Source of the DNA: Cystobacter fuscus
GTDB taxonomy: Bacteria > Myxococcota > Myxococcia > Myxococcales > Myxococcaceae
Direction of reading: 5' to 3'
Length of the DNA stretch: 64,000 bases
Assembly (NCBI RefSeq): GCF_002305875.1
Contig: NZ_CP022098.1
Location: forward strand, 8,742,001 to 8,806,000
The position numbers were made by a program, and so were the translations under genes. The notes beneath the pieces were generated by a model that did not search any database, was not told the DNA's origin, and saw nothing but the letters and a program-made list of their open reading frames with translations. Position 1 is the first letter of the stretch; every line of letters begins with the position of its first letter. This document shows positions 6,983-25,395 of the stretch, one piece after another.

Positions 6983-9724
6983 GTGCGAACCGTCCCCGGC
7001 GCTCCGTTGCGCCTGACCTTCCAGCGCAAGCTGTTGCTCGCCTCCGCCGCGGTACTGCTGCCGGTGATGGTTTTACTGGGCGTGGATCTCGTCGAGGACG
7101 CGCGGATGACGCGCAAGACGCTCCTGGACGCCCAACGCCTCACGGCCCATGCCGTCGCCGTGCAGGTCACCGAGTCCTTCGAGGCGGCGATCGATCTGGG
7201 CTGGGCACTGGCCAATGATCCCCTCGTGCGCACACTCAACCCCGAGCTGCTGGATGCGCACCTGCTGAAGCTCACGGGGCACCACACCCGCTTCAGCTCG
7301 GTCGGGGTCTACGACGCCCGGGGCCACAACCGCGGCTGGGGGGATCCGGAGATGCCCGCCGAGCCCCGGCTCTGGATTGGAGACCGGCCCTTCTTCCAGA
7401 AGGTGATGGCCACCAACACGCCCGTCGTCTCGGAGGTGATCGAGCTGAAGCGGCCCGTGCGCACGGCGTTGATCGTCGCCGTGCCGATCCGCGACGCCCG
7501 GGGACAGCCCATCGGCGTGGTGGACGTGGTGATGGAGACCCACCTGCTGGCCCAACGCTATCTCTCCGCCCGACACCACTCCCAACAGGAGATCCTCCTG
7601 GTGGACCCCGCCGGCCGGCTGGCCTTCCACACCCACTCCCCCACCCTGTCGTTCGAGCACGGCCTGTCCTTCGCCTCGTTCCCCCCGCTGCACGCGGCGC
7701 TCGAGGGCCGCCCCGTGCGGATCGACCATGCCACGGACCCGCTCACCCAGGAGGACATCCTGGGGGCCTTCGTGCCCACGCCCCGCTATGGCTGGGCCGT
7801 GGGGGTGATGGCCTCGCGCGAGTCCGCGATGGCCCCGCTCACCCAGCGGCTGTACCTGAAGCTGGGCGCCGTCGTCGGCATCGCGATGTTCAGCGGCATG
7901 CTGGCCGTGGTGCTGTCGCGCCGCCAGACGCGGCCCGTGCGTCAGCTCCAGTCGCTCGCCCATGCCCTGGGCCAGGGGGACATGGCCCGGCGCGCCCACA
8001 TCCAGACGGGCGACGAGATGGAGGAGCTCGGCGAGGCCTTCAACCAGATGGCCATCCACATCGCCCAACGCCAGCGCGAAGTGGACGCCCTGCGCGCCGA
8101 GGCCGAGGACCATGCCCGGCAACTCGCCGCCATCATCGCCAGCGTGCCGGATGCCATCCTCCTGGCCAGTCCGGACGGTCGGCTGTTCGACGCCAATCCC
8201 GCCGGACGGCGGCTGCTGGGCGTCACGGAGCACACCCAGCTGGAGGTGCTGCTGACCGACCACCTCCAGCGCTCGTGGATCCGCCACCCCGATGGTCGCC
8301 CCCTGACCCAGGAGGAGCTGCCCTTGAGTCGCGCGTTGCGGGGGGAGACCTTCTCGGACCTGGAGCTGCGCATGCGCTCGCTCACGGGCGAGGAGTACCT
8401 CGTGAGCGTCAACGGGGCGCCGGTGCGCGACGCCACCGGGCGGATCATCCTCGGCGAGGTCGTCCTCCACGACATCACCGAGCGCAAGAAGATCGAGGAG
8501 GAGCGGGCCCGGCTCCTGGCGCGAGAGCAGGCCCTGGCCCGTATCGGGCAGGCCCTGGTGCGAGAGGTGGAGCTCGAGCGCATCACCTCCGTGGCCAGCG
8601 AGCAGTGCCGCCAGGCGCTCGGCGCGGACGCCGTCGGGCTGTGGCTGGCGCACCCGGATCCCACCCGCTTCACCCGGGTGGCCGCCCATGGCTTCTCGTC
8701 GGCGAGCCGCGAGGACGTGGAGGAGCTGCCCCTGTGCGAGCTGCCACCCGGGACCATCCAGGACGAGGAGATCCAGCTCATCGACGCCCATGGCGGAGGA
8801 GACGTGTCCTTCCCGGGCCACGCACTGGCGAAGCGGGAAGGCTTCGCCAGCGTGGTGCTCATTCCCCTGCACTCGCGCGGACGGCTGGTGGGCGTCCTGG
8901 CCTGCTTCTCCCGGGAGCCGCTGGAGCTGTCCACGAGCGAGCGCGAGTTCCACACCACCGTGGGCCAGCTCGTCGCCGTGGCCATCGAGAAGGCCCGGCT
9001 GTTCCAGGAGGTGCGCGAGGCCCTGCGGCTGCGCGAGGAGTTCATGTCGGCGGCGGCCCACGAGCTGAAGACGCCGGTGACCACGCTCCAGACGTGGGCG
9101 GACATCCTCACCTGGAAGGAGCCGGGCTCCGAGCGCCAGCGCAAGGGGCTCGCCGCCATCTCCCGGGGGGCCCGGCGGCTGGGACGGCTCGTGGAGCACC
9201 TGTTCACGGCCCTGCGGATGGCACCGGGTCTGACGAAGCTGGAGCGGGACCGGGTGGACCTGCGCGCCCTGCTGGCCGAGCATGTCGCCAGCCTGTCGCG
9301 CAGCACGGATCACCCCATCCACCTCGTCGCCGAGGAGACGCCCATCATCGAGGCGGACCGCCAGCGCATGGGCGAGGTGCTGGCACACCTGCTGGAGAAC
9401 GCCCTGCGCTACTCACCACCCGCCCGTCCCATCGAGGTCCGGCTGGGATGCGCGGGCAACGAGGCCGTGGTGTCGATCCACGACCACGGCCCCGGCATTC
9501 CCCTCGAGCGCCAGCCCCATGTCTTCGAGCCGCTCTACGAGCCCCTGCCCTCCGGGGCGCCGGGCTACGCGGGCATGGCCGGACTGGGGCTGCACCTGAG
9601 CGCGCGCATCATCGAGGCACATGGTGGCCGCATCTGGCTGGAGAGCGCCCCCGGCGAGGGCACCACGTTCTGCTTCAGCCTGCCGCTCCACGGAGTGGAG
9701 GGCACGCGGCACGCCAACGCCTGA
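6983..9724 (+). CDS. Membrane sensor histidine kinase (Cache-HAMP-PAS-GAF-HisKA-HATPase)
   Basis: 913 residues. Transmembrane segment 1 at about 14-36, a periplasmic Cache-type sensor (about 40-285), transmembrane segment 2 (about 292-312), then HAMP (about 313-365), PAS (about 377-500), GAF (about 515-670), HisKA with the phospho-acceptor H693 in AAHELKTP, and an HATPase domain with N-box LLENALRYS, DHGPGIP and GLGLH. No receiver domain is attached and no response regulator is adjacent, so it is an orphan kinase whose partner is elsewhere. GTG 6983 starts directly before the membrane helix; the start is not firmly fixed. It is followed after 43 bases by a metallophosphoesterase gene on the same strand. 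Confidence 0.92.
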   Translation: MRTVPGAPLRLTFQRKLLLASAAVLLPVMVLLGVDLVEDARMTRKTLLDAQRLTAHAVAVQVTESFEAAIDLGWALANDPLVRTLNPELLDAHLLKLTGHHTRFSSVGVYDARGHNRGWGDPEMPAEPRLWIGDRPFFQKVMATNTPVVSEVIELKRPVRTALIVAVPIRDARGQPIGVVDVVMETHLLAQRYLSARHHSQQEILLVDPAGRLAFHTHSPTLSFEHGLSFASFPPLHAALEGRPVRIDHATDPLTQEDILGAFVPTPRYGWAVGVMASRESAMAPLTQRLYLKLGAVVGIAMFSGMLAVVLSRRQTRPVRQLQSLAHALGQGDMARRAHIQTGDEMEELGEAFNQMAIHIAQRQREVDALRAEAEDHARQLAAIIASVPDAILLASPDGRLFDANPAGRRLLGVTEHTQLEVLLTDHLQRSWIRHPDGRPLTQEELPLSRALRGETFSDLELRMRSLTGEEYLVSVNGAPVRDATGRIILGEVVLHDITERKKIEEERARLLAREQALARIGQALVREVELERITSVASEQCRQALGADAVGLWLAHPDPTRFTRVAAHGFSSASREDVEELPLCELPPGTIQDEEIQLIDAHGGGDVSFPGHALAKREGFASVVLIPLHSRGRLVGVLACFSREPLELSTSEREFHTTVGQLVAVAIEKARLFQEVREALRLREEFMSAAAHELKTPVTTLQTWADILTWKEPGSERQRKGLAAISRGARRLGRLVEHLFTALRMAPGLTKLERDRVDLRALLAEHVASLSRSTDHPIHLVAEETPIIEADRQRMGEVLAHLLENALRYSPPARPIEVRLGCAGNEAVVSIHDHGPGIPLERQPHVFEPLYEPLPSGAPGYAGMAGLGLHLSARIIEAHGGRIWLESAPGEGTTFCFSLPLHGVEGTRHANA

Positions 9725-9767
9725 GTTCCAGCACTCCCCGCGCGCGTGCGTTAGACATGGGGTGTCC

Positions 9768-10856
9768 ATGTCCAGCCATCCCCCTCCCCTGGGCCGACTC
9801 CAGGTCCTCACCATCCTCTTCGTCGCCGTGATCCAGTTGCCCGCGGTGCTGTGGGCCTGCGGGGTCACCCACTCGCCCCTGCCAGCGCTGGGGGCGGTGC
9901 TGGTGTCCCTGCCCTATCTGCGTCACCTCCAGACGCCCTGGCAGTCCACGAGCCCCGCGCGCATGGCCTACCTGACGCTGGGCTGGTGGTCGGCGTGTCT
10001 TGTGTTCGGCGTGCTCCTGCTTCCCGCCACGCTGGCCATCCATGCGGGCCTGCCCCGCGCCTGGGTCTGGGGTGGGTGTGGCGTCATCGCGCTCGCCATG
10101 GGGGCGCACTCGGTGCTCGGCCGGCCCCGGCTGCGACGGCTCGTGGTGCGGGTGGAAGGACTCGCCCCCGAGTTGGACGGCTACCGCATCGGGCAGATCT
10201 CCGACGTGCACTGCGGCCCCTATGTCCCCGAGAGCCGCGTGGCCACCTGGGTCGCCCGCCTCAATGCCCTCGACGTCGACCTGATGTCCGTCACGGGAGA
10301 CCTCATCACCCAGGGCTCCTCGCACGTCGAGGCGGTCTCCCGGGCGCTCGGCGGGCTGCGTGCCCGGGATGGCGTGTTCGCCTGCATGGGCAATCACGAC
10401 TACTTCACGGATGGGGAGCGCTTCGTCCAGGCGCTGGAGCGGCAAGGCCTGACCGTGCTGCGCAACCGCGGCGTGGTGGTGAAACGGGGCAACGCGAGCC
10501 TGTACGTCGCGGGGGTGGACGACACCTGGACCTCGCGCCACGACCTGCGGCGGGCCCTCGCGGCGCGGCCGGACGGGGTGCCCACGGTGCTGCTCGCGCA
10601 TGACCCCAACCTGTTTCCCCAGGCCCAGGCCCGCCAGATCGAGCTGACGCTCTCGGGCCACACCCACGGCGGGCAGCTCGCGGTGCCGGGCGTGCGCGGC
10701 CTGTCCCTGGCCCGGTTCATCAGCCGGTGGACGGCGGGGCTTTACCGGCAGGGCCGCTCGTGGCTGTACGTGAACCGCGGCGCGGGCACCACCGGGCCGC
10801 CGGTGCGGCTGGGCGCTCCGGCGGAGCTGGCCGTCATCACCCTGCGCCGGGCGTGA
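9768..10856 (+). CDS. Membrane-anchored metallophosphoesterase, YaeI-like
   Basis: 362 residues. The first 125 residues contain about four hydrophobic helices. The rest is a calcineurin-like phosphoesterase with its dimetal motifs in order: ISDVHCG, TGDLI, GNHDYF, AHDPN and SGHTHGGQ. The layout matches the YaeI/YkoE group of membrane phosphoesterases, several of which act on UDP-sugar or lipid pyrophosphates; the substrate here is unknown. The catalytic domain lies just after the last helix. ATG 9768 precedes the first hydrophobic segment. It sits 43 bases behind the sensor kinase gene and may be cotranscribed. Confidence 0.9.
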   Translation: MSSHPPPLGRLQVLTILFVAVIQLPAVLWACGVTHSPLPALGAVLVSLPYLRHLQTPWQSTSPARMAYLTLGWWSACLVFGVLLLPATLAIHAGLPRAWVWGGCGVIALAMGAHSVLGRPRLRRLVVRVEGLAPELDGYRIGQISDVHCGPYVPESRVATWVARLNALDVDLMSVTGDLITQGSSHVEAVSRALGGLRARDGVFACMGNHDYFTDGERFVQALERQGLTVLRNRGVVVKRGNASLYVAGVDDTWTSRHDLRRALAARPDGVPTVLLAHDPNLFPQAQARQIELTLSGHTHGGQLAVPGVRGLSLARFISRWTAGLYRQGRSWLYVNRGAGTTGPPVRLGAPAELAVITLRRA

Positions 10857-10967
10857 GCCCCTTCCTCCCGACTCCTCCCGTCGGATGAGGTGTGCCATCG
10901 TGCGCGCCGGGCATGCCCCTCGCGCCACGCGGGGGCACGGGCCCACGTCACGTCTGGAGAGCTCCAC

Positions 10968-11330
10968 ATGTCGGGATTGAAGAAGTACACGGGCGGCTGT
11001 CACTGCGGGAAGGTCGCGTACGAAGTGAGCGCGAACCTGGACAACGTCATCTCCTGCAACTGCAGCATCTGCCAGAAGCGGGGAATGCTGCTCACCTTCG
11101 TGCCCCCAGAGCAGTTCGTGCTCCAGAAGGGCGACGAGAAGGCGCTCACCGATTACCAGTTCAACAAGAAGGTCATCCACCACCTGTTCTGCCCGGAGTG
11201 CGGCGTGGAGTCGTTCGCCACGGGGAGCACGCCGGACGGAAAGAGGATGTATGCCATCAACGTGCGGTGCCTGGAGGACGTGGACCTCGCCGCCCTCAAG
11301 CCCCAGCCCGTCGACGGCCGGCGCTTCTAG
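10968..11330 (+). CDS. GFA family (CENP-V/Gfa) zinc protein
   Basis: 120-residue protein of the glutathione-dependent formaldehyde-activating enzyme fold. Zinc ligands are visible as GCHCGK (about residues 10-15), CNCSICQK (about 31-38) and CPEC (about 79-82). Members bind zinc in a beta-barrel; many have no proven enzyme activity, so a formaldehyde role should not be assumed. GGAGAG lies a few bases before ATG 10968. Stand-alone gene with a possible hairpin just after its stop. Confidence 0.88.
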   Translation: MSGLKKYTGGCHCGKVAYEVSANLDNVISCNCSICQKRGMLLTFVPPEQFVLQKGDEKALTDYQFNKKVIHHLFCPECGVESFATGSTPDGKRMYAINVRCLEDVDLAALKPQPVDGRRF

Positions 11331-11664
11331 CGCACTTCCCCCACCGGGGCGGGAAGCCCCTCCACCCGGCGCGGCGCGAGTTTCGTGGGGATCGGCTTCC
11401 CTCTGGAGCAGGGCTGGCGGCGAGTCCATTGAGGAACAGGACATCCGCCGCCCGTCGAAGGTCGGAAAGCTGGATCCTCACGGGGCCCTCACCAGCCACT
11501 GCTCTCCAGCAAGGCCGGCCGGAGCGAGCTCCCTCAGGGCCTTCAGGAGTTCGGCTTCAACCTCTGCAATGGAGTTACTCGGATTCCAGAGATGCTCAGC
11601 GTACTCCTACTGGATACCGCTGGGTGACCTGTAGGACGGATAGGTGTGTGCGCATGTCCTCCGT
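11331..11664. other. 334-base gene-free stretch between converging genes
   Basis: No supported gene. A GC hairpin immediately follows the GFA stop codon (11335-11356). From about 11560 the composition drops toward the lower GC level of the SEC-C gene on the other strand. Confidence 0.55.
11335..11356 (+). terminator. Possible GC hairpin terminator
   Basis: CTTCCC (11335-11340) pairs with GGGAAG (11351-11356), and the inner C-run can pair with GGGG across ACC. It sits five bases after the GFA stop codon. No T-run follows. Confidence 0.4.
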
Positions 11665-13851
11665 CTACCGCCTGGTTATACAGCAGTGCTTGTATTTCTT
11701 TCCACTCCCACACGGACACGGAGAGTTCCGGCCGGGTCGGTAGGATCTGGGCGTCGGGTCCGCGGCCTCTTCAGCCTTCAACAACTCCTCCATGACTGAA
11801 TCGTACTTCCATGGAGCGTCGATGAACGCTACGCACTCGAAATACGAAGCGTTCTGCCGCAGGATGAGCCCGAAGCCTATTCCCCTGGTCGTTCTCTGCC
11901 GGTACTTATCCAGAGAGAGGCTAGACTGAACAGGCTCCTTCAGTAACTCGGGGACCAGGTCCACCGTCGAGACGATGGAGATCGTCAGGTCCTCCACGCG
12001 ATGGGTAGCGCAACTGAAGAACCCAGGCCCAGGGGCTGGGGAGGCTTTGGCATGCAGGAAGGCATCTGCTAGTTCCTTCAACTCCCCGAAGGTCATGGAC
12101 AGGATGCAGAATGCAACCCACCTGTCTTCTGGAGTGTCTCGCCGCCTCAGCTCCCCCAGGATCGCGCGCACCTCGGCTGGCACGTTGAGTTTGATGTTCG
12201 GCGGAGTCTCGACATGCCCTCGCTGGTAGGACATGGCCAAGTCGAACTGGTGCTGATAGCCCATGAGGGCCAGATAGGAGGACTCCCCCATCACCGACGT
12301 GAGCAGCGAGTCGACATGGATCAATCTCGACTCAAGATAGAATCCGAAATACTCCAGCTCGTCCCCGCGCAATACCGTCGACCGGCGCATTCCATCGATA
12401 CGCCGATCTGCGTAGTGCGCGAACACCTCGGGCCCGGGACAAAAGCGGGTGATGGTCTCAAGGATCGCGACCGAGAGCGCCCATGGGTATTCACCTTCGC
12501 GGAACAGGCCCATGGGATGAAGCCGGTGAAGCATGGCGCTCAGTTGGCTGACGTCATGCTGAGAGACAGCCATCAAATAGATCCTCTTCATCCTGGAGGT
12601 ATCTATCTCAACCGGATTTCGGGTTTCCCTCTCGATGAAGCGTGGACGCTCGGTGGACTGTACGTACTTCAGGGCGCGGAGTCCCTGTCCGAATGCATCC
12701 TCGATGGAGCTCCTCAAGTCGGAGCGCAGCCTCACCAGGTCTCCCAGCGCGGACTGTCGCCGGATCTGCTTGGCCTTCACCTCGATCAAGAACAGGAAGG
12801 GGGGCCAGTCGACGAGGACATCCAGCTCCGTGGTGCTCGCAGGATGGTCGGGGTCCGGATAGTCGAGCGTCGAGAAGATGGCGGACGGTGGGAACAGATT
12901 GCTCAGGCTATTCACGACCTGCTGCTGGATGGCATTGGCTTGGTGCTTCTGATATTTTTGGTAGAACTTTTCATCGGCTCTGGCGAGCGTCTCATATGCC
13001 GCCTGCAATTCGTCAAACGCACTCGTGACGTTGGCAAGCAGGAACCTGTCCTCCGAGAGCACGTAGAGGGGGTGTCTCGCAATTTCCTGGACATGTTTCA
13101 TGAACCGCCGGGCTTCCTGCGTGCACCCGATCAGCCGTCCCAGGGCCAGCCATTCCTCGCGGGAGACGGCTAGGGCCGGGTCAATGGATGACATGGCCAC
13201 GGGCAGCTCTCGAACGGCGGCCTGAGCCATAGCATCGAAGATGCGACACTGACTCTCGAATTGGCTGAGCTGCTGCTCCTGCGACGTGGCCTGCGAGGAT
13301 CGCCCGACGGAGAGCACGGCCCTCAGGGCTCGTTCCTCCGTGCTTCCGATTGCCAAGACCAGCTCTACGGCACGTGACGGGCCTATCCCCGCCCTCCTCT
13401 TGAACCACTCCTCGAACCTGCCCTGGGTTGCCCGGATCTCCTCGGCGGTCTGCTCGGCATACGCCGAACCGCGCAGGTAGGTCGAGTGGAGCTTCATGTA
13501 GGCGGACAGTTCGAACGTATCGTCACCTTGCGGCTGTCCCTCAGGGACTGGCGTGTGGTCAATATTCGAGAGGCCCTCCGTCTTGGCGAGCGCATGGATT
13601 GACTCGAGGCATTCTTCGATTTGAATGCAGGAGGGCATGCCTTGCCGCGCCGACGCACTGAACTTCGGGTATAGCCAGTAGGCGAGCAGCTCAAGCGACA
13701 GGGGCTTTTCCGCCACGGTGAGGAGGGATTCTCCGTCCAGCGGGCGAATCCCCAGATGAAGGAAGCATGCTGTGAACAGCTGCTCCGCGTTGACCTGCGA
13801 CGCGAGCTGTTCCAACTGCTCGATTGCCGTCTGCCGCTCCTTGGAGAACAT
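11665..13851 (-). CDS. Large protein with PD-(D/E)XK nuclease-like region and C-terminal SEC-C zinc motif
   Basis: 728 residues, not assignable to a named family. Residues about 340-360 read TELDVL then LIEVKAK, giving a D344...E357-x-K359 arrangement typical of restriction-like nucleases. The last 20 residues hold a SEC-C zinc motif (SPCPCGSGKKYKHCC). The remainder is mostly helical and charged, with no signal peptide or membrane helix. Composition is clearly less GC-rich than in neighbouring genes, a sign of horizontal transfer. ATG 13851 is chosen because upstream in-frame sequence looks non-coding; no strong ribosome site is visible. It lies 82 bases downstream of the DUF2169 gene on the same strand. 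A role in DNA or RNA defence is plausible but unproven; a housekeeping SecA-linked role is unlikely. Confidence 0.7.
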   Translation of the reverse strand: MFSKERQTAIEQLEQLASQVNAEQLFTACFLHLGIRPLDGESLLTVAEKPLSLELLAYWLYPKFSASARQGMPSCIQIEECLESIHALAKTEGLSNIDHTPVPEGQPQGDDTFELSAYMKLHSTYLRGSAYAEQTAEEIRATQGRFEEWFKRRAGIGPSRAVELVLAIGSTEERALRAVLSVGRSSQATSQEQQLSQFESQCRIFDAMAQAAVRELPVAMSSIDPALAVSREEWLALGRLIGCTQEARRFMKHVQEIARHPLYVLSEDRFLLANVTSAFDELQAAYETLARADEKFYQKYQKHQANAIQQQVVNSLSNLFPPSAIFSTLDYPDPDHPASTTELDVLVDWPPFLFLIEVKAKQIRRQSALGDLVRLRSDLRSSIEDAFGQGLRALKYVQSTERPRFIERETRNPVEIDTSRMKRIYLMAVSQHDVSQLSAMLHRLHPMGLFREGEYPWALSVAILETITRFCPGPEVFAHYADRRIDGMRRSTVLRGDELEYFGFYLESRLIHVDSLLTSVMGESSYLALMGYQHQFDLAMSYQRGHVETPPNIKLNVPAEVRAILGELRRRDTPEDRWVAFCILSMTFGELKELADAFLHAKASPAPGPGFFSCATHRVEDLTISIVSTVDLVPELLKEPVQSSLSLDKYRQRTTRGIGFGLILRQNASYFECVAFIDAPWKYDSVMEELLKAEEAADPTPRSYRPGRNSPCPCGSGKKYKHCCITRR

Positions 13852-13933
13852 GAGCGAAGCATAAGACGTATAGGGGCTTTGTTGAGGGAGGGCTGGTGCA
13901 GAGGGTCCGAGCAGGCCAGCAGGCAGGAGGCCC

Positions 13934-14965
13934 TCAGGGAGGGGTTCTTCCGCTCCCCGGCCCCATCCACACCTTGAGCCCCCGCACCTCATGCGCGCCC
14001 TGCTCCAGGGGGATGGTGCCCCTCCACAGCAGTAGCACGCGGCGCGCATCTGGCTCCAGGATGACTGTGTCCAGGCTCATCACCGGCTCGATGGGCCCGC
14101 CTTCCAGCGCCGCGCACACCCGCGGCCGCACTCCCGGAAGCTGGAATGTCAATCGCTCCTTGGGTGAGGCATTGACGAGGAGGACCGGCTCATTGCCCTG
14201 GAGGTAGCCCGGAGCCACCAGGCCCGGGGACGCGGCATTGAAGTAGCGCCGGTCGAAGTCCCTGGGCAGCAGCGGCTTGCGGCCCGACTCCCACGCCTTG
14301 TCGTAGGTGCCGGCGAGCGCGGCCCGGGGCTGCCAGTCCGGAGAGATGAAGCCGAACCCCACCGGGGGGACCCGCTGCCCAAACTGAATCAGGGGCCGGG
14401 CCGGGTCCTCAAGGTTGGGCAGCCGCAGCCCCTCCTCGTAGTGACGCGGACTGGCCCGGAAGCCCGCTCCCACCGGGTTGTGCGGCTCGAACTGCGGGTT
14501 CGCCGGAGCCGTGGCCGTCCGGTCACGTCCGCCGAAGGCCCGCTCATAGACGAGGGGCAACTTCTCGAAGGACAGCGGGCGCGTCATCGAGACCTGCCCC
14601 AGGCTCCGAACCCAGACCCGGTCCCCTACCACGCGGACCACCTTGCGCAGGGGGCCCACCCGGACCTCCACCTCCAACTCGGTGGTGTTCCGCGCGGGCG
14701 CATACGCGTGCCCGTTCAGGACCACGTCCGTGGCCAGCTTGGTGAAGGCTGTCTCGGGCTCGTACCGATAGCTCGACTGGCCCGGCTCCCCCCACGTCTC
14801 TCCCGTGAGGCTGACCGGCACGGGCGTGTCTGCCAGCTTCAGCCCGTCCTTCTCGAGCAGGTAGGTGGCCTTGACCACCACCACCACCAGCGGACGCAGT
14901 TCCTCGTCCGCCAGGGCGAGCGGCTCGACCGCGAAGGGCGTCTGGTTGTTGATGGCGAGTCCCAC
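13934..14965 (-). CDS. DUF2169 family type VI secretion adaptor
   Basis: 343 residues. The start NNQTPFAVE and the motifs YERAFGG, FNPVG-like HNPVGAGF and FDRRYFNAA are typical of DUF2169 proteins, which act as cytoplasmic chaperone/adaptors loading effectors onto PAAR-type spike tips of the type VI secretion system. GTG 14965 follows GAGGAAAGC with good spacing and begins the conserved domain; TTG 14983, close behind GAGGAGG, is the alternative. Divergent from the DUF4150 spike gene, 119 bases apart, which supports the role. No VgrG or structural type VI gene is in the window, so this is an accessory cargo locus. Confidence 0.87.
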   Translation of the reverse strand: MGLAINNQTPFAVEPLALADEELRPLVVVVVKATYLLEKDGLKLADTPVPVSLTGETWGEPGQSSYRYEPETAFTKLATDVVLNGHAYAPARNTTELEVEVRVGPLRKVVRVVGDRVWVRSLGQVSMTRPLSFEKLPLVYERAFGGRDRTATAPANPQFEPHNPVGAGFRASPRHYEEGLRLPNLEDPARPLIQFGQRVPPVGFGFISPDWQPRAALAGTYDKAWESGRKPLLPRDFDRRYFNAASPGLVAPGYLQGNEPVLLVNASPKERLTFQLPGVRPRVCAALEGGPIEPVMSLDTVILEPDARRVLLLWRGTIPLEQGAHEVRGLKVWMGPGSGRTPP

Positions 14966-15084
14966 GCTTTCCTCGGCTCCCAAATCCCTCCTCGGAGGGC
15001 AGTTCCAGGCCGGAGACTATCAGTGCACGGCCCTGTTGGGCGGGCCGCCCGGGGGCCATGCCCTGGGGGGCCCGGGGCGCTATA

Positions 15085-15561
15085 ATGGCGGTCATGGGGA
15101 AGAACTTCGTGGGCGTGAACAAGCTGTCCATTGTCAATGCCGACTCGGGCGGGACGACCATCGCGTTCCCGGACGTGTGCAAGACGCCCAGCCCGGCGGG
15201 CCCCGTACCCATCCCCTATCCGAACATCGCCCGCTCGGCTGACACCGACAAGGGCTCGAAGACGGTCACCGTGGAGGGCAAGCCCCTCTGCCTGAAGGAC
15301 TCGAACTTCTCCACCAGCACCGGCGACGAGGCCGGCAGCGCGGGCGGCGTGGCCTCGGGGAAGACAAAGGGCAAGGCCGAGTTCGTCAACTACTCCTTCG
15401 ACGTCTCCATCGAGGGCAAGAACGTGCCGCGCTCGTTCGACCTCATGCTCCACAACGACAAGAACACGCCGCCTTTTCCCGTGCTCCAGCCGCCCGTCAT
15501 CGCCATGGACAAGCAGGACGAGAAGCTCAAGTGCCCCTGCTGCGGGGACCTGCAGTCCTGA
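15085..15561 (+). CDS. DUF4150 PAAR-like spike protein
   Basis: 158 residues. The block IAFPDVCKTPSPAGPVPIPY is the hallmark of DUF4150, a PAAR-like domain that caps the VgrG spike of type VI secretion machines. No toxic extension is present; the C-terminus ends in CPCCGD, a possible zinc knuckle. ATG 15085 is preferred; ATG 15094 is also in frame. TATAAT overlaps the start region (15081-15086), which could be a chance -10 match. The DUF6484 gene follows after 17 bases, and the DUF2169 adaptor diverges upstream, forming the usual adaptor/spike module. Confidence 0.88.
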   Translation: MAVMGKNFVGVNKLSIVNADSGGTTIAFPDVCKTPSPAGPVPIPYPNIARSADTDKGSKTVTVEGKPLCLKDSNFSTSTGDEAGSAGGVASGKTKGKAEFVNYSFDVSIEGKNVPRSFDLMLHNDKNTPPFPVLQPPVIAMDKQDEKLKCPCCGDLQS

Positions 15562-15578
15562 CGGAGCGCGCCCACCCC

Positions 15579-16097
15579 ATGGCTCAGAACTCTCCCAGGC
15601 ACCCCGCATCCTCCCAGCCCGGGGAGGAGGATCCCCCCATCCATGGCATGCGCGTCGGCTGGGTGGTGGGTGTGGACTCGGACGGCTCGGTCCGGGTCGA
15701 CTTCGCGGGCAACCGGCACGGGCCGCTGCTGGCGCGCACCACCGTCCTGCTCGAGCCGGAGCAGTGGCGCCAAGCCGCGCGCGAGCGCCGGGAGGCGACG
15801 CTCTTCTTCGATGACGGCAGGCCCTCTCGCCCTGTCCTGACGGGCCTGCTCCAGCCCATGCCGCCCACGCCCCTGCTCGACGCCGTGCTGGCACAGCAGC
15901 TCCCCGAGGCGCCCCGGGAGGCCCAGGTCGACGGCCGGCGTGTCCTGCTGGAGGGGCGCGACGAGGTGGTGCTGCGGTGTGGCAAGGCCACCCTTGTTCT
16001 TCGCGCCGACGGCAGGGTCATCCTCCGTGGGGTGGAGGTCCTCACCGAGGCGGAAGGCGTCCACCGCATCCGCGGAGGGAAGGTGAAGATCAACTGA
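15579..16097 (+). CDS. DUF6484 family protein
   Basis: 172 residues. After a variable 30-residue start, a small beta domain opens with VGWVVGVDSDG and VDFAGN-HGPL, and the C-terminus holds short strands LEGRDEVVLRCG, LRADGRVIL and GGKVKIN, like the repeating edge of a spike-type beta helix. These blocks match DUF6484, commonly found beside DUF2169 and DUF4150 genes. Its biochemical role is unknown; a structural or connector function at the type VI spike is inferred from context. Cotranscribed with the DUF4150 gene and converging with the Imm49-like gene nine bases away. Confidence 0.8.
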   Translation: MAQNSPRHPASSQPGEEDPPIHGMRVGWVVGVDSDGSVRVDFAGNRHGPLLARTTVLLEPEQWRQAARERREATLFFDDGRPSRPVLTGLLQPMPPTPLLDAVLAQQLPEAPREAQVDGRRVLLEGRDEVVLRCGKATLVLRADGRVILRGVEVLTEAEGVHRIRGGKVKIN

Positions 16098-16106
16098 CGC
16101 GGGCCG

Positions 16107-16871
16107 CTAAAGCCCCAACTGCTCGGGAAACGGCTCGGACGGGGCCTGGAAGGCCTCCGAAGGCATGAAGGGCAGACGCGGCCGCGCGGGGATCCCCCAC
16201 AGTCCCGCCAGCCGGACCAACGCGAGACCCTCCACGAAGATGGAGGCCTCCGTCCGTGCGAAGTACGCATCGAGCGCGTCCTGGCGCCGGTCGGCCTCGA
16301 TGCCCTCCTCCCACTCCCGGGTGAGCACCGACAGGGCATGCCAGAAGGCGTCGGCATCCTGGCGCATGAGCGCGGCGAGGGCGTCGAAGCGGGCGGAGGA
16401 CCCCTCCAGGCAACGCTCGAAGGAGGCCAGCCGTGCCTCGTCCGGCTGCCGCTCCAGCAGCGGCCCGGAGAGCAAGTCGAAGTAGCGGAAGTCCTCCTCG
16501 GGCTCCATCTTCGGTGCCCAGGGGGTGTCCAGCTTCGCGCTAATACTGCGGGCCAGCGGCAGTTGGTTGAGCGCCAGCGCATCCAACAGGGGCTGTGCCC
16601 GGGACTTGCAGAGGTAGTACGTGTCCAGCCGGGGGTGGGCGGCGCGCTGGTCCAGCAGCCACTCGTAGAGGCGGGCGCTCTGGAAGAGCGAGTGCTGGAA
16701 GCCATCCACGTCCAGGTCGATCAGCAGCAGGCCGCAGCCGAGCTGGCGGGAGCGGGCACAGACGTCCAGCACGGTGGCGGCGTCCGGGCCGTCCTCGCGC
16801 AGCCGCTCCAGTCCGTCCTGGAGCTCTTCCTCGAGGTTCTCCAGCGTGATGTCCAACTCGAGCATGCCCAT
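16107..16871 (-). CDS. Imm49-like immunity protein
   Basis: 254 residues, soluble, almost entirely helical, with SRQLGCGLLLIDLD near residue 45, LARSISAKL near 110 and EEDFRYFDLL near 127, which fits the Imm49 family of predicted toxin-neutralising proteins. ATG 16871 has AGGAG five bases upstream. It is the last gene of a tight four-gene unit, eight bases behind the Imm11-like gene. Two immunity-type genes behind one nuclease gene suggest protection from more than one toxin, or a relic of an earlier effector. Family assignment is moderately certain; the toxin it blocks is inferred. Confidence 0.65.
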   Translation of the reverse strand: MGMLELDITLENLEEELQDGLERLREDGPDAATVLDVCARSRQLGCGLLLIDLDVDGFQHSLFQSARLYEWLLDQRAAHPRLDTYYLCKSRAQPLLDALALNQLPLARSISAKLDTPWAPKMEPEEDFRYFDLLSGPLLERQPDEARLASFERCLEGSSARFDALAALMRQDADAFWHALSVLTREWEEGIEADRRQDALDAYFARTEASIFVEGLALVRLAGLWGIPARPRLPFMPSEAFQAPSEPFPEQLGL

Positions 16872-16879
16872 GAGGGCTC

Positions 16880-17470
16880 CTAGGGAAGGGTCTCGCCCAT
16901 GGCGGCGACGCTGATGCCGGTGCAGTCGGCGGCCTTGAGCTTCTCCAGCAGGTCGGAGCGGATGAGGATGCGGTTCTTCAGCTCGCCGAGCCGGAAGAAC
17001 AGGGCGTCCTTCGGCACCTTGTCCTCGTGCACGTACAGTTTGCTGAGGCTGGTGCTCACCACCTTCCGCTTGGTCGGGTAGAGGTTGTACTCGGAGCGGT
17101 CCCAGTCGAAGCAGTCGAAGCTCTGGAGGGCGTTGGCGATGAAGTAGGGCTCGGGGACCTTCTTGCGCTTGCGGTCCTTGAGGGTGAAGGGCAGGAACTC
17201 CACCTGCTCGGGCCCCAACCCCGCCTGCTCCAGGATGGCCCGGGCCTTTTCCGAGACCAGCACCACCTTGTGGATGTTGTCGATGAAGTCGGTGACCATG
17301 TCGCCGTCCTTCTTCGACAGGGTGAGCTCCAGCTTGGGGGGATACTTGTCCCCCAGCGCCATGCCCTCGTTCAGCATCCAGTAGTCGTCGAAGGCGTCAT
17401 CGAGTTTCTCGATGACGCCCACACGGGGGTCACTGTTGATGACGAAGATGAAGTACTCGTGACGTGCCAT
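16880..17470 (-). CDS. Imm11-like (DUF1629) immunity protein
   Basis: 196 residues, soluble. MARHEYFIFVINSD at the start, EFLPFTLKDRKRK in the middle and SFDCFDWDRSEY are typical of DUF1629/Imm11 proteins, widespread in Myxococcus beside toxin genes. It lies between the AHH nuclease gene (17 bases upstream) and the Imm49-like gene (8 bases downstream), so coexpression is clear. Most likely it binds and silences the AHH nuclease, but which of the two immunity proteins does so cannot be told from sequence. Confidence 0.75.
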   Translation of the reverse strand: MARHEYFIFVINSDPRVGVIEKLDDAFDDYWMLNEGMALGDKYPPKLELTLSKKDGDMVTDFIDNIHKVVLVSEKARAILEQAGLGPEQVEFLPFTLKDRKRKKVPEPYFIANALQSFDCFDWDRSEYNLYPTKRKVVSTSLSKLYVHEDKVPKDALFFRLGELKNRILIRSDLLEKLKAADCTGISVAAMGETLP

Positions 17471-17487
17471 ATCCTGACCCTATCAGC

Positions 17488-18393
17488 TCACCCGGGCTTG
17501 ACCTGGCCGATCTGCCTGCCTGGCTTCATGGTCTTGATCTGCTTGAGAATCTTCTCGGAGACGGAGTCGAGATCGACCGCCACGTCCTCGGTGTCCTCGC
17601 AGGCTTTCGTCCGCATTGCCTTGGTGAGCTTCTGCTTTGCGTCCGTCAGCCAGTCCCTCATGGATTTGGAATAGGCGGCGTGCTTCTTCAGCCCCCAGGG
17701 ACAGTGCGCCGGCAGCTCGACAATCTTCGAGACGGAGGTCTCCTGCGGCAGCAGGACGATGTTGTTCGGGCCGTTGATGTTCCACTTCGAGGCACACAGG
17801 AGCTCGACGCGGCGCTTCGTCTTGTCGTCGTTGCCGCAGACGTACTCCTGGAGCGCGCCCTGCGGAATCAGGTGGTGGTAGTTGTGGTGGTATGGGTACC
17901 ACGCCCCATAGCCCTCGGCGGGCCCGTTCTTCACCTTGAAGGTGGGCTCGCGGCGCCCCAAGTACTTCTTGGGGACGTGCTCGGCCGGGAGTGTGTAGTC
18001 GTAGTGCCAGCCCTTCTCGTTGAGGCTCAGCCACTTGATGGACCCGCCGAAGCGGCGCTCGAAGAGCTTGCGAAACGCCTCCCTCGCCTCGCTCGTCTTC
18101 CGGGCGGTCCGGGACTTGGCCTTCACCTCCTGCGAAATCTTCGAGGTGAGCTTGAGGTCACCGCGCCTGCGCTTGTCGCCCGAGACATCCAGGACGTAGC
18201 CCAGCGCCAGGGCGTTCTTGCGGTGGTCCTTGTTGTACATGTCCAGGCGGGAGCCGCTGACCTTGTAGCCGTTCATGGCGTAGTGGCAGGCCGTCGTCCC
18301 ATAGCCGCCAGAGTGGCGCCAGATGCAGCCGGTCGTGTCATCCTGGTGGTACTGCGCTTTGAAGTCCCAGGAAACGTGCTTCTTCTTCCCCAT
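17488..18393 (-). CDS. AHH/HNH-type nuclease, predicted type VI effector
   Basis: 301 residues. Residues about 180-250 carry the catalytic block: HHNYHHLIPQG, then NINGPNNIVLLP and PAHCPWGLKKHAAYSKSM. This His-rich pattern fits the AHH branch of the HNH/endonuclease VII fold, found as the toxic domain of bacterial effectors that degrade DNA or RNA. The lysine-rich N-terminal part (about 1-150) may be the loading domain. No signal peptide, as expected for type VI cargo. ATG 18393 follows GGGAGG at good spacing. Flanked by a fused HEAT/ketosynthase-like protein upstream and two immunity-type genes downstream. Nuclease assignment is good; delivery route is inferred from context. Confidence 0.78.
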   Translation of the reverse strand: MGKKKHVSWDFKAQYHQDDTTGCIWRHSGGYGTTACHYAMNGYKVSGSRLDMYNKDHRKNALALGYVLDVSGDKRRRGDLKLTSKISQEVKAKSRTARKTSEAREAFRKLFERRFGGSIKWLSLNEKGWHYDYTLPAEHVPKKYLGRREPTFKVKNGPAEGYGAWYPYHHNYHHLIPQGALQEYVCGNDDKTKRRVELLCASKWNINGPNNIVLLPQETSVSKIVELPAHCPWGLKKHAAYSKSMRDWLTDAKQKLTKAMRTKACEDTEDVAVDLDSVSEKILKQIKTMKPGRQIGQVKPG

Positions 18394-18423
18394 CGCTACC
18401 TCCCGGGTACCGCCCGCTGGTAC

Positions 18424-20838
18424 TCAGGCCCGGGAGAGCCGCGCGGCCGCGAGCTCTCCGGAGTCGGAGCTGGACCAGACGAGGGCCTGGTCTCCGTGAG
18501 CATACCCCCTGGCGAACCCCTGGAGCACGGCACATACCGAGATGAGTCCACTGGCCGCTCCGGTGTCCCCCAGGCACTCGGCCGGGGCGTGGAGGTGGGT
18601 CCGCTCCAGTGGGTGCGTCTCCCGGAGCACCGACTGCGCGAAGCCCCACTCCAGGGCACGCGCGTGTTCGCCGTTGACGTCGCCGTAGATGTCTCCCACC
18701 GGCGGGGCACCGGCGGGCCAAGCCTGGCGGACGGCCTGTGTCAGGGCGCGCCCGGACTCCGCGCCCCTGCGAGCCTCCCCCACCGTCCGCCCCATCCCCA
18801 CTGCGGCCAGCGTGCCCAGCAGGGATGCGTTGCGCCGCGCCGCCTCGGTGCCAGTTTCCAGCAACACGGCGGCGGCTGCCTCGCCCGGCATCAGCCCCAT
18901 GGGGTGCTCCGGCGTCTTCAGCCGCCTCCGGCTGGCGAGCCACTGGAGTGTGTCCTCATCCACCAGGCTGTCGATGCCCAGCACCAGGGTCCGCTGGAAA
19001 CGCCTCTCCTGGAGGAACTGGGAGGCCTGCTGGAGGGCGAGCAGCCCCGAGGCATGGCCCGCTTGCAGCACCGAGACGTTCTGGACGGGGAGGGCCAGAC
19101 CGCCGTGCCGTAGCAGCCGCGAGGGGAGTTGCTCGGCGATGAGCTCGTCCTGGAAGTCGAAGTCGTCCCGCCGGGTGGGCGACAGGCAGAGCAGTAGCGC
19201 CGTCTGCCGGAAGAAGGCGGTGTCGCCTCCGGAAAGCTCAGCCGAGCGCAGCAGGTCCTCCAGAGCGAGTGTCCCCAGCTTGATGAGCCGGGCCAGGCCG
19301 GTGAACCCGTCCACCAACCCCCGCAGGGGGTGGCCCGTGACCACGGCCGCGCCGGGCTCGTCCAGCCGGAGAACCTGGAAGCGCAGAGGCCGGGGCCGGA
19401 CGATGCGCGCCCGGAGCGAGGCACATGACTCGACCGCTCCATGGCCGATAGCGCTCACCATCCCCATGCCCGTGAAGACGAGCGCGCTGGGCACCCGTGC
19501 GCGGGCCTGGGGGCGAGCCACCTGCTCGGAGCGCGGAGCGGAGGGCGGCGACGTCCAGCCCCGCATCAGCTCTCGGAACCGGCCGGCGGGCACCCGGCCC
19601 AGGGCGCCACGCATCCGCGCCAGCTCTCGCAGTTGCCGGGCCGCGAGGAGCCTGGTGTCGAGCTGGCACCGCCCCCCCGTGCGAATCGCCAGCTCCAGCG
19701 CCAGCACGGGTCGGCGGCGCATGGGACCATGCTCCAGGAACTCGAGGAGCCGCTCGGGACTCCACGGGTCGCCGCCCAGGTACCGCTCGGTGGGTTTGAA
19801 ACGGGAGTGCGCCTCCTTCCACCACGCCTCGATGCGCCCGGCGTCCGGAGAGAGCAGGTCGCCCTCTGGTCCCCCATCCTCCTCATTCTCCACGGGAGGT
19901 AGGACGAACCCCTGCTCCAGCGGCAGGCCGGTGATGGCCGTGAAGGCCTCTGCGGCCACCCGGGCCAATGCCTCGTCCCTCAGCCAGGGCAGTAGTGCTT
20001 GGGCTGCCGCCAGTCTTCCACTGAAGCCGAGCGCCCAGAGGGCATCGCGCCGGGTCGCGGGGGCGTCAAGCCCCCGCAGCAGCGGCTCAAGTTCCTGCCC
20101 GGATGAGCCCAGCGCCCAGACCTCGGCCACGGGCTTCCACGACTCCGAGAGGGACGCGATGGACTGCTCGTACGCATGCCACGCCTCCGGCAGCCCGAGT
20201 ATCAAGCCCGTCTCCAGGGCGGCGCCGCGTATCGCCGGGGCATCCGAGTGGAGCGCCTGCAGCAGGGAGGCCAGCTTGATCAGGGTGGGGAAGTGGCGGG
20301 CCGCGCGCAGGGCGGCACATGCGAGATCCGGGTCCTCGTCAGCCACGAGGTGGTCCAAGCTGCCAGGGGGAGGGTGCTGTCGGGCCACGAGGACGTCCAG
20401 GAGGGCGGCCCGGGCGGTGGGGCCGACGCGCTCGAAGGCGGCCAGCAGGTGAGGCGCCAAGCCTGGACGGGAGGAGAGGCGGAGCGCCTCTCGGAGCCCC
20501 TCGCGCTGGTGGGGCTCCCCCTCTTGCAGGACGTCCAGAATGGCCCCGCTCCAGTCTTCTTCCATGCCGAGGAGCGAGAGCCCTGCTGCGAAGGACTCCT
20601 CCCGGCTGTCCGCAGCCAGCCGGGGAAGCAGCAGGCGCCGGGCGACCTGGGGGCCTCCCAGCGCCAGCGCATCCACGTGAGCCAGCAGCCGCTCCTCCGG
20701 GCCACCCGCGACCTCCCGAGGCGTATAGAGGGGGGAGGAGAGGCTCTCTTCCCACCGATTGAGCAGGAAGGCGGCCTCGTCCAGGTGCTCCTCCGCGATG
20801 TCCCAGCGTAGAGGAGGCGGGTCAGTAGGGCGTGGCAT
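18424..20838 (-). CDS. TIGR02270-like HEAT-repeat protein fused to a ketosynthase-like domain lacking catalytic Cys
   Basis: 804 residues. Residues about 1-460 are alpha-helical HEAT-like repeats of the TIGR02270 type, often encoded beside type VI genes. A short linker leads to a thiolase-fold domain (about 480-804) opening with VFTGMGMVSAIG. Where active ketosynthases have their cysteine, this protein has QAGHASG, with H595 in the cysteine position. The usual HGTGT-type histidine motif reads GDVNGE, and the second His motif reads GDTGAASG. All three catalytic residues are therefore changed, so it cannot be a normal condensing enzyme. ATG 20838 begins the conserved part; no strong ribosome site is seen. 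First gene of the AHH nuclease unit, 30 bases upstream. A scaffold, effector-loading or peptide/acyl-binding role is inference. Confidence 0.78.
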   Translation of the reverse strand: MPRPTDPPPLRWDIAEEHLDEAAFLLNRWEESLSSPLYTPREVAGGPEERLLAHVDALALGGPQVARRLLLPRLAADSREESFAAGLSLLGMEEDWSGAILDVLQEGEPHQREGLREALRLSSRPGLAPHLLAAFERVGPTARAALLDVLVARQHPPPGSLDHLVADEDPDLACAALRAARHFPTLIKLASLLQALHSDAPAIRGAALETGLILGLPEAWHAYEQSIASLSESWKPVAEVWALGSSGQELEPLLRGLDAPATRRDALWALGFSGRLAAAQALLPWLRDEALARVAAEAFTAITGLPLEQGFVLPPVENEEDGGPEGDLLSPDAGRIEAWWKEAHSRFKPTERYLGGDPWSPERLLEFLEHGPMRRRPVLALELAIRTGGRCQLDTRLLAARQLRELARMRGALGRVPAGRFRELMRGWTSPPSAPRSEQVARPQARARVPSALVFTGMGMVSAIGHGAVESCASLRARIVRPRPLRFQVLRLDEPGAAVVTGHPLRGLVDGFTGLARLIKLGTLALEDLLRSAELSGGDTAFFRQTALLLCLSPTRRDDFDFQDELIAEQLPSRLLRHGGLALPVQNVSVLQAGHASGLLALQQASQFLQERRFQRTLVLGIDSLVDEDTLQWLASRRRLKTPEHPMGLMPGEAAAAVLLETGTEAARRNASLLGTLAAVGMGRTVGEARRGAESGRALTQAVRQAWPAGAPPVGDIYGDVNGEHARALEWGFAQSVLRETHPLERTHLHAPAECLGDTGAASGLISVCAVLQGFARGYAHGDQALVWSSSDSGELAAARLSRA

Positions 20839-20949
20839 GGCGGGTTGTATGTTAACGAATCGAATCTCCCAGGGACATGTCCCCATGTCCCCCACCGATT
20901 TTGAAGCCCGGGGATGAACGCCCGGCCTTCCCACCTCGAGGGCCCCGGC

Positions 20950-23064: not shown

Positions 23065-23276
23065 GTGCGTCCTCCTGACGTCCCCTGCCCGGATAGGCAT
23101 GGGCAGGAGGGGAGGCGAGCGCTTCACGGAAACCTCACCCGGGTGTGCCCATTGGAGAACGGACCTCGGGGCGGACCTGTCGCGTGGAAGGCATCGCCTG
23201 GTGACCGGGCAAGCGCCCGACGCCTACCGCCCCCCTGAAATAGAACGGGCCCGTCGCGGTAGCATGACGCCTCCCC

Positions 23277-24621: not shown

Positions 24622-25395
24622 GTGAAGACCCCACACCCCAGACAACTCGTTTTCCTGAGCATGCTTCTGACCTTTGGCTTGACCGGCCACGCCGCGGATT
24701 CCGTCACGAACGCCTGCGGACAGAACCCGGCGTATTGCGCCGTGCTGACGGGCAAGGAAGCCGCCGTGCCCGCCACGAAGGGCGCGGCCGAGATTGCCTC
24801 CATCGCGGCCACCCTCCGCCTGCTGCCAACCGACATGAAAGCGCGAGTCGAACGGGAGTTGGTGGAATGCGCTGAGCGGGCGGATTTTCAGGTCAACATT
24901 CGTCGCTTCGCTGGCGATCAGCCATCGCGCGAGCAGTGCCAGGAGGTACTGCCCGGGTGGGATCCTTGCGGCAAGAAGGTAACCCGCGCCATGCAACTGG
25001 GCACCGAGAAGCACCAATTGGCCCTCCAGTGCATCCAGGAGCGATTCAACCGCCTGTTCCCTGGGCGTTTCAGCCTGGAGCAGCGCTATCGCTACGACAA
25101 GCAGACCAGAAGCACGAAACTCATCAGCCGAGAAGAAGCCCGCGTACTCCGGAAACAGGATTGTGGAGAGGAACTCAAGGGCACCCTCGTTCCCGATGTG
25201 GTCATCCACTCGGGCAACCCTCTTGAAGCCCTGGCCATCTACGACTTCAAGTTTCCTTGTCCTTCGACCAATCCTCCCTCTTGGAGCGAGTATCCCGAAG
25301 GGCATCCCCACTACCCTGAAAACCAAGGTAAAATGTACGAACAGGCATTGGGTGCAGCCGCATTCCGGGTGGCTCCCCGCTGGAGAGTCCGCTAA
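24622..25395 (+). CDS. Exported VRR-NUC-type (PD-(D/E)XK) nuclease effector
   Basis: 257 residues. GTG 24622 gives a clean signal peptide ending near TGHA-AD; a TTG at 24577 is an in-frame alternative that buries it. The C-terminal part holds PDVV (D192) and YDFKF (D208-x-K210), a restriction-like active site, followed by YPENQGKMYEQALG, typical of effectors paired with DUF3396 proteins. Many cysteines suggest disulfides after export. The stop codon overlaps the next start as TAATG, so the two products are translationally coupled. The toxic nuclease role follows from the active-site pattern plus the partner family; how an exported protein reaches its target is open. Confidence 0.72.
   Translation: MKTPHPRQLVFLSMLLTFGLTGHAADSVTNACGQNPAYCAVLTGKEAAVPATKGAAEIASIAATLRLLPTDMKARVERELVECAERADFQVNIRRFAGDQPSREQCQEVLPGWDPCGKKVTRAMQLGTEKHQLALQCIQERFNRLFPGRFSLEQRYRYDKQTRSTKLISREEARVLRKQDCGEELKGTLVPDVVIHSGNPLEALAIYDFKFPCPSTNPPSWSEYPEGHPHYPENQGKMYEQALGAAAFRVAPRWRVR

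What the first reader, a model, noticed from the sequence alone, without database searches (positions are those of the whole stretch)
11665..13851. Low-GC 728-residue protein joining a restriction-like site to a SEC-C motif
D344...E357-x-K359 and a C-terminal CPCG...HCC zinc motif sit in one large helical protein of foreign composition beside secretion cargo genes. It could be a single-gene defence nuclease.
Basis: partly seen in the sequence, partly recalled or inferred. Interest (0 to 1): 0.55.

Follow-up and report, generated by a model that had tools for sequence, protein, structure and literature searches.

The report
Probable one-gene phage-defence nuclease
This bacterial gene encodes a diverged member of an apparently unnamed protein family that joins a DNA-cutting type of fold to a small metal-binding tail; its relatives often sit in known anti-virus gene sites, so it is probably a one-gene defence against phages, although this copy has one altered active-site position and nothing has been tested in the laboratory.

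Summary
In detail: a 728-residue low-GC protein with D344, E357-x-K359 and a true SEC-C motif, beside secretion-cargo genes. Relatives with the same build (15-20% identical over the alignment) occur on plasmids, prophages and chromosomes of several phyla. D344 is conserved in 31 of 31 rows, K359 in 30; position 357 is E (11) or Q (20). AlphaFold2 gives a confident restriction-like core that superposes on PD-(D/E)xK nucleases. Position argues for defence: both E. coli copies of one type are the sole gene between psu and integrase of P4-like satellites, and one copy lies between gpA and the portal gene of a P2-like prophage, both published anti-phage hotspots. At 10 of 13 tested loci, hand-picked neighbours match defence models such as Gabija, Mokosh, Avs2, Shedu (no control). 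Caveats: the window protein is the longest branch, alone of 31 rows has Q at the helix-A glutamate (309), lies outside the Q-x-K clade that carries the position evidence, and has no defence neighbours. I rate it a new variant of a known kind: NERD-like single-gene defence nuclease with SEC-C tail; function untested.

The parts
11665..13851 (-). 728-aa gene: helical N-terminal region, NERD-like PD-(D/E)xK nuclease core, C-terminal region, SEC-C tail
13081..13851 (-). residues 1-257: helical N-terminal region, modelled mostly at low to medium confidence
   Evidence: AlphaFold2 model
12562..12984 (-). residues 290-430: restriction-like nuclease core (H294-316, E325-332, E340-349, E352-359, H372-399, E423-430)
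   Evidence: pLDDT by tens 92-96 except 69, 81, 89 over 361-390; PD-(D/E)xK matches
12820..12822 (-). D344 codon, D in 31 of 31 rows
12775..12783 (-). E357-V358-K359 codons (position 357: 11 E, 20 Q; position 359: 30 K, 1 R)
12925..12927 (-). Q309 codon (CAG) where the other 30 of 31 rows have the helix-A glutamate
12358..12402 (-). R484 to E498: both residues invariant in 31 of 31 rows, just downstream of the nuclease core
11752..12339 (-). residues 505-700: helices, then beta-beta-alpha-beta-beta; no clear known fold found
   Evidence: model pLDDT 80.7; best structural Z 4.5
11680..11730 (-). SEC-C metal-binding motif, residues 708-724
   Evidence: PF02810 above cut-off; matches SecA and YchJ tails
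11574..20916 (.). stretch without a match at this place in same-genus genome G001, which has about 1.9 kb of other DNA there; G003 (break at 11414) has 6.9 kb and G002 (break at 11317) 6.0 kb; it contains the gene
13934..14983 (-). neighbour: DUF2169 protein (type VI secretion-associated, recalled)
15058..16097 (+). neighbours: Tox-PAAR-like (15058-15561) and DUF6484 (15531-16097)
16880..18393 (-). neighbours: Imm11 immunity protein (16880-17470) and AHH-family nuclease toxin (17488-18393)

Best explanation
The gene is a strongly diverged member of a family, not modelled as a whole in Pfam, NCBIfam or PADLOC as searched, of single-gene, horizontally carried proteins: helical N-terminal region, NERD-like PD-(D/E)xK nuclease, C-terminal region, SEC-C metal finger. 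Most likely role: intracellular anti-phage defence. Proposed working: the helical and C-terminal regions hold the nuclease in check and sense infection; once triggered, the nuclease core cuts nucleic acid (probably DNA) with metal ions held by D344 and E357 and with K359; the SEC-C tail binds a metal and docks a protein partner. Shown: architecture, conservation, gene position. Predicted: fold. Inferred: catalysis, substrate, trigger, docking, and that this copy still works as its relatives would.
For: Relatives with the build: tblastn of the window protein matches 40 of 72,556 plasmid records, one covering at least 80%; a relative used as query (E limit 1e-30) matches 31 records, 30 covering at least 80%. 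Six full-length plasmid proteins are 709-745 aa; all five scanned have SEC-C, two pass the NERD score and three match it weakly. Conservation over 31 rows: D344 31, Q389 31, R484 31, E498 31, K359 30, E or Q at 357 31. Model: alpha-beta-beta-beta-alpha-beta core mostly at pLDDT 89-96; rows over it include Nt.BspD6I Z 9.2, Can2 7.8, AF1548 7.6, Card1 7.0, McrBC 6.7, a Holliday junction resolvase 5.3. One longer row, 'Upx' (9wuf, Z 7.5, 351 residues, rmsd 5.5, model 21-577), is by recall a single-gene PD-(D/E)xK defence protein. E. coli: 2 of 5,426 genomes have a copy covering at least 80% of the query and in both it is the only annotated gene between psu and integrase of a P4-like satellite, the published P4 hotspot (PMC9122126). 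L254 lies between P2 gpA-like (phrog_91) and portal (phrog_68) genes with only a doubtful 81-codon ORF besides, the published P2 hotspot. PADLOC matches in neighbours at 10 of 13 tested Q-x-K loci: Gabija (L069), Mokosh I (L030, L036), AbiEii (L035), Avs2 (L034), Shedu SduA (L285), type I specificity subunit (L275), DUF262 proteins (L274), candidates PDC-S02 (L032) and PDC-S20 (L276); none at L031, L033, L277. The window copy is absent from three same-genus genomes and of foreign GC.
Against: Q309 replaces a glutamate found in the other 30 of 31 rows, and no acid lies in residues 295-316, so metal binding may be weakened. The protein is a very long branch (3 changes per site) on the E-x-K side, not in the Q-x-K clade on which nearly all the position evidence rests. 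It does not reach PF08378 even at E 1. Its block carries secretion-cargo genes, not defence genes. Neighbour genes were chosen by eye without a matched control, and two of the ten hits are candidates only. On the E-x-K side one neighbour gene was tested, without a hit (L147). Foldseek alone gave nothing below E 0.001, and a profile of the nuclease region finds no significant solved structure by sequence (best Can2, E 0.38).
Confidence: 0.55

Rival explanations
1. Defence-family descendant that has lost or changed its nuclease: the core folds, but Q309 makes it inactive or reassigned, for example to nucleic-acid binding.
For: Q309 unique among 31 rows; longest end branch of the tree; among 194 other genomes searched in the phylum, 5 have a relative matching beyond SEC-C, and those are far from it.
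Against: Intact 728-codon frame, and D344, E357, K359, Q389 and the whole SEC-C motif kept; decay would be expected to hit these too.
Confidence: 0.2
2. Housekeeping or maintenance nuclease of mobile elements (recombination, replication, exclusion of rival elements) rather than phage defence.
For: 9 of 17 annotated loci show an integrase or recombinase in the stretch displayed; found on plasmids, prophages, satellites and an ICE-like island.
Against: It occupies variable cargo sites (P4 psu-int, P2 gpA-portal), not core modules, and neighbours match defence models at 10 of 13 tested loci.
Confidence: 0.13
3. Type VI secretion effector: a DNase delivered with the adjacent PAAR-like/DUF2169 cargo module.
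For: It starts 82 bp downstream of a DUF2169 gene on the same strand, near Tox-PAAR-like, DUF6484, AHH and Imm11 genes.
Against: GC step at the gene's edge, as for a separate import; none of the 17 annotated loci of relatives shows a PAAR, VgrG or DUF2169 gene in the stretch displayed; no loading domain in Pfam; relatives lie in phage satellites.
Confidence: 0.08
4. Protein-quality or Sec-pathway accessory protein: SEC-C is the functional part, as in SecA and YecA.
For: The SEC-C domain of SecA binds SecB, and YecA is suggested, in work not peer-reviewed, to be a chaperone (PMC8076867, passages).
Against: 4 of 26 rows of A4 lack the SEC-C cysteines while keeping the nuclease residues; sporadic distribution.
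Confidence: 0.04

Closest known systems
NERD-domain nucleases (Pfam PF08378), including the NERD parts listed for Mokosh type I and Nhi-like defence systems (PMC10952713, table passage)
   Same: PD-(D/E)xK core with D...(E/Q)xK; 4 of 15 relatives scanned pass the PF08378 score
   Different: No helicase domain found; own N- and C-terminal regions and a SEC-C tail; the window protein itself does not reach PF08378
Upx (recalled: a single-gene PD-(D/E)xK defence protein; the paper I had in mind is not held)
   Same: Solved chain 9wuf aligns over 351 residues, model 21-577, Z 7.5, rmsd 5.5; by recall also a lone defence gene
   Different: 1212 residues; Z is tied with unrelated-length rows, so kinship is a lead only; no sequence match to it with the family profile at E 10
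Shedu (SduA, DUF4263)
   Same: Single-gene defence nuclease (recalled); a SduA gene lies beside one relative, L285
   Different: No DUF4263 match in the window protein; no SEC-C in Shedu as recalled
CRISPR ancillary nucleases Can2/Card1
   Same: Nuclease core superposes at Z 7.0-7.8
   Different: No CARF match in Pfam; activation must differ
SEC-C proteins: SecA C-terminus, YecA, YchJ, PADLOC candidate PDC-S12
   Same: The same C-terminal metal motif
   Different: Similarity of the window protein to them is confined to the C-terminal end
Anti-phage genes of P2/P4 hotspots (PMC9122126)
   Same: Relatives occupy exactly those intervals
   Different: 'SEC-C' and 'NERD' do not occur in that paper's main text; its supplements were not read

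Membership tests
PD-(D/E)xK nuclease superfamily | alpha-beta-beta-beta-alpha-beta core with the motif on its strands | tested here: met
   Predicted, not solved; structural matches Z 5-9 to PD-(D/E)xK enzymes
PD-(D/E)xK nuclease superfamily | D and (E/Q)xK residues | tested here: met
   D344 31/31, E or Q at 357 31/31, K359 30/31
PD-(D/E)xK nuclease superfamily | acidic residue on the first core helix (common, not universal; recalled) | tested here: not met
   Q309 in the window protein; E in the other 30 rows
PD-(D/E)xK nuclease superfamily | metal-dependent nuclease activity | not testable with these tools
   needs purified protein
NERD family PF08378 | score above the curated cut-off of 22.1 bits | tested here: not met
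   Window protein: no PF08378 match at E 1. Of 15 relatives scanned at E 1, 4 pass, 6 match below cut-off, 5 do not appear
SEC-C motif PF02810 | score above cut-off; CPCGSGKK-type cysteine pattern | tested here: met
   36.6 bits against 20.4
SEC-C motif PF02810 | binds a metal ion | not testable with these tools
   needs biochemistry
Upx | same overall fold as the solved Upx chain | tested here: inconclusive
   9wuf Z 7.5 over 351 residues, rmsd 5.5, tied with other rows; no sequence match
Anti-phage defence system | located in defence islands or anti-phage hotspots | tested here: inconclusive
   Met for relatives (without a control), not for the window copy
Anti-phage defence system | protects cells from phage | not testable with these tools
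   plaque assays needed
Anti-phage defence system as modelled in PADLOC-DB 2023 | match over more than the C-terminal end | tested here: not met
   Window protein and 7 of 9 relatives match only at the C-terminal end, the longest being L254 from residue 623; 2 of 9 have no match
Type VI secretion effector | PAAR, VgrG, MIX or other loading domain in the protein | tested here: not met
   Pfam finds only SEC-C above cut-off
Type VI secretion effector | secreted by the type VI machine | not testable with these tools
   needs the native host

The most novel reading that the evidence does not exclude
A class of one-gene immune nucleases that use a SecA-type SEC-C finger to dock on SecB or another protein-export or chaperone partner, so that phage-induced disturbance of protein handling, not phage DNA itself, releases the nuclease.
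Probability: 0.08. Interest if true: 0.75.

Novelty: new variant of a known kind. Interest (0 to 1): 0.5.

Why it matters
If true, it adds a single-gene anti-phage family that the three profile libraries searched with it (Pfam, NCBIfam, PADLOC) do not model as a whole, found from E. coli satellites to plasmids of Bacteroidota and, as a shortened copy, of a cyanobacterium, and small enough to clone and test directly. It would also give the SEC-C motif, known mainly from protein export, a role in immunity. The natural E-to-Q exchanges (position 357 in one branch, position 309 in the window protein) are a ready experiment on which acids such a nuclease needs.

Tried and rejected
Scans that gave nothing: genome contigs with the single protein (17 stretches, none confirmed); phage records with the window protein and with a relative (no match in 50,697 records); viral contigs with the E. 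coli copy.

Rejected: 'preprotein translocase SecA' or 'prepilin peptidase' as annotated on some relatives, because similarity of the window protein to SecA is confined to the C-terminal end. Rejected: obligate partner of Mokosh, because the gene orientation differs between L030 and L036 and other loci tested have other systems or none. Foldseek gave no match at E 0.001 or below in three searches. The C-terminal region modelled alone gave no structural match above Z 4.5, so its fold stays open. No sigma-70-like promoter was found in 11300-14200, which means little in this organism.

Rows left out of the 31: L033 (split frame), L255 (broken), L277 (shortened), L036, L252 and L273 (close to L030, L251 and L272), and repeat fetches of the same genes (L001, L006, L033-type duplicates such as L250, L256-L264, L267, L268). 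PADLOC neighbour genes were chosen by eye, 29 genes at 13 Q-x-K loci plus one at L147; Q-x-K loci not tested: L068, L070, L148, L251-L255, L265, L271-L273, L278. Integrase counts come from annotation only.

Papers: PMC9122126 passages and section 10; PMC10952713, PMC12458937, PMC12409351, PMC8076867, PMC9519451 passages only; others as search listings. 'Not described' rests on paper searches in an open-licence library, and on Pfam, NCBIfam and PADLOC; PHROGs was used only for neighbours. Subscription papers (for example the Upx source, not held) and supplements were not seen.

Full report
WHAT IS THERE. The reading frame 11665-13851 on the minus strand encodes 728 residues. A 728-codon open frame is not chance: 300 base shuffles of the gene gave stop-free runs of at most 384 codons. 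Pfam finds one family above cut-off, SEC-C at residues 708-724 (E 4.1e-9), which matches the SecA and YchJ tails of solved structures. The acidic pattern by itself is weak evidence: such a pattern appears in three quarters of residue shuffles.

COMPOSITION AND PLACE. The gene has 59.8% GC (GC3 0.759) in a 68.7% window, and the low-GC stretch is the gene itself; 13934-20916 beside it has 68.8%. Alignment to three same-genus genomes shows a variable place between a GFA-family gene (10890-11330) and a catalase gene (20950-23127): matches stop at window 11573, 11414 or 11317 and resume at 20917-20983, and the three genomes carry about 1.9, 6.9 and 6.0 kb of other DNA there. None of the three has the gene at E 1e-5. 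The block also holds DUF2169, Tox-PAAR-like, DUF6484, Imm11 and AHH genes.

RELATIVES. A direct pattern scan found no close relative, but tblastn on plasmids matched 40 of 72,556 records, several with the same overall build. Identity to the window protein is 15-20% over the 26-row alignment; local BLAST identities are about 20-27%. I gathered 31 rows in two groups, one with Q-x-K (20 rows) and one with E-x-K (10 rows plus the window protein), separated at 100/99 support; the window protein is a very long branch on the E-x-K side, and the program warns that such places are unsure. Among 194 other genomes searched in the phylum, 5 have a relative matching beyond SEC-C. In the order around Pseudomonas rubra, 3 of 293 genomes including the centre have a Q-x-K member. 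In E. coli, 2 of 5,426 genomes carry one type and 7 of 5,426 another. The family is therefore sporadic, and 9 of 17 annotated loci show an integrase or recombinase.

CONSERVATION. Over 31 rows: D344 31, Q389 31, R484 31, E498 31, K359 30 (one R, L039), position 357 11 E and 20 Q, position 342 29 E and 2 D, position 309 30 E and one Q, which is the window protein (codon CAG). Q-x-K in place of E-x-K is a known variant in this superfamily (recalled). SEC-C cysteines are kept in 22 of 26 rows of A4; L040, L251, L270 and L271 lack them.

FOLD. AlphaFold2 with 18 rows gives mean pLDDT 73.9; the nuclease core lies mostly at 89-96 with a dip to 69-81 over 361-380, and the N-terminal region is much lower. 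The order H294-316, E325-332, E340-349 (D344), E352-359 (E357, K359), H372-399 (Q389), E423-430 is that of PD-(D/E)xK enzymes. Structural rows over this region: Nt.BspD6I Z 9.2 (rmsd 4.2 over 181 residues), Can2 7.8, AF1548 7.6, Card1 7.0, McrBC 6.7, Holliday junction resolving enzyme 5.3. Row 8, titled Upx (9wuf), aligns 351 residues over model 21-577 at Z 7.5 and rmsd 5.5; Upx is, by recall, a single-gene PD-(D/E)xK defence protein, so this may hint at kinship beyond the core, but the Z is tied with others and the family profile finds no sequence match. Foldseek alone gave nothing at E 0.001 or below. The C-terminal region alone folds with pLDDT 80.7 as helices plus beta-beta-alpha-beta-beta and SEC-C without a clear match. 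Of 15 relatives scanned, 4 pass the Pfam NERD score; the window protein does not appear even at E 1, so I call it NERD-like, not NERD.

WHERE RELATIVES LIVE. In both E. coli genomes with the first type, the gene is the only annotated gene between 'phage polarity suppression protein' (psu) and the integrase of a P4-like satellite at ssrA. Rousset and colleagues define the psu-int interval as a hotspot of anti-phage systems and the gpA-gpQ interval as the P2 hotspot (PMC9122126). L254 lies in that second interval: the gpA-like gene ends at 7300, the relative is 7986-10139, the portal gene is 10208-11233. Elsewhere, PADLOC models match neighbours at 10 of the 13 Q-x-K loci tested: Gabija A and B at L069, Mokosh A and B at L030 and L036, AbiEii at L035; DUF262 proteins at L274, type I specificity subunit and PDC-M16A at L275, PDC-S20 at L276, PDC-S02 at L032; Avs2 at L034 and Shedu SduA at L285. 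No hit at L031, L033, L277. These genes were picked by eye and no matched control was run; L030 and L036 are close kin; L032 and L276 have candidate systems only; and the E-x-K side was hardly tested (one gene of L147, no hit).

HOW IT PROBABLY WORKS. A single gene occupies the P4 site, so sensor and effector should be in one chain. I propose that the helical and C-terminal regions restrain the nuclease until infection, after which it cuts nucleic acid; the SEC-C tail is probably a protein-docking metal finger, as in SecA, where it binds SecB (PMC8076867, passages). None of these steps is shown. For the window copy, Q309 may weaken one metal site; the retained D344, E357, K359, Q389 and SEC-C argue against simple decay.

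VERDICT. It is a new variant of a known kind. The searches behind 'not described' are listed under Tried and rejected; subscription literature and supplements were not seen.

Noticed in passing
window 11574-20916: Same-genus genomes carry other DNA of very different length at this site (about 1.9, 6.9, 6.0 kb): a chromosomal turnover site between GFA and catalase genes.
   Followed up: partly
window 11415-11573: This left edge is shared with G001 but not in the matches to G003 and G002, so the edge of the variable block differs between genomes; possibly the remnant of an earlier cargo gene.
   Followed up: no
window 25395-26279: TsiV-type immunity protein (for VRR-NUC effectors, E 8.9e-52), a second type VI cargo site close by, also of lower GC3 (0.739).
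   Followed up: no
window 16107-16871: Weak Imm49 similarity (19 bits, below cut-off) in a 254-aa protein next to Imm11.
   Followed up: no
L033 7177-9281: The Salmonella plasmid copy is split into two overlapping frames and carries no gene in the PLSDB table.
   Followed up: partly
L255 3859-6016: A prophage-borne copy is broken into pieces, with a stop inside.
   Followed up: no
L274 9914-14774: Seven E. coli genomes carry this NERD-type gene; in the one inspected (EcPF16) it is followed by a 778-aa YecA-family protein that also ends in a SEC-C-type match, then two DUF262 genes: two SEC-C proteins side by side in a defence-like island.
   Followed up: partly
L036 10882-13981: A His-Xaa-Ser peptide system (hxsA, hxsC, hxsB) lies near the family member on the Agrobacterium plasmid, two genes in between.
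   Followed up: no
L039 1501-3969: An E-x-K group member in which K359 is replaced by R, the only such row of 31.
   Followed up: no
model m48a0420cfc25, residues 21-577: Long structural alignment (351 residues, Z 7.5) to the solved protein titled Upx (9wuf).
   Followed up: partly
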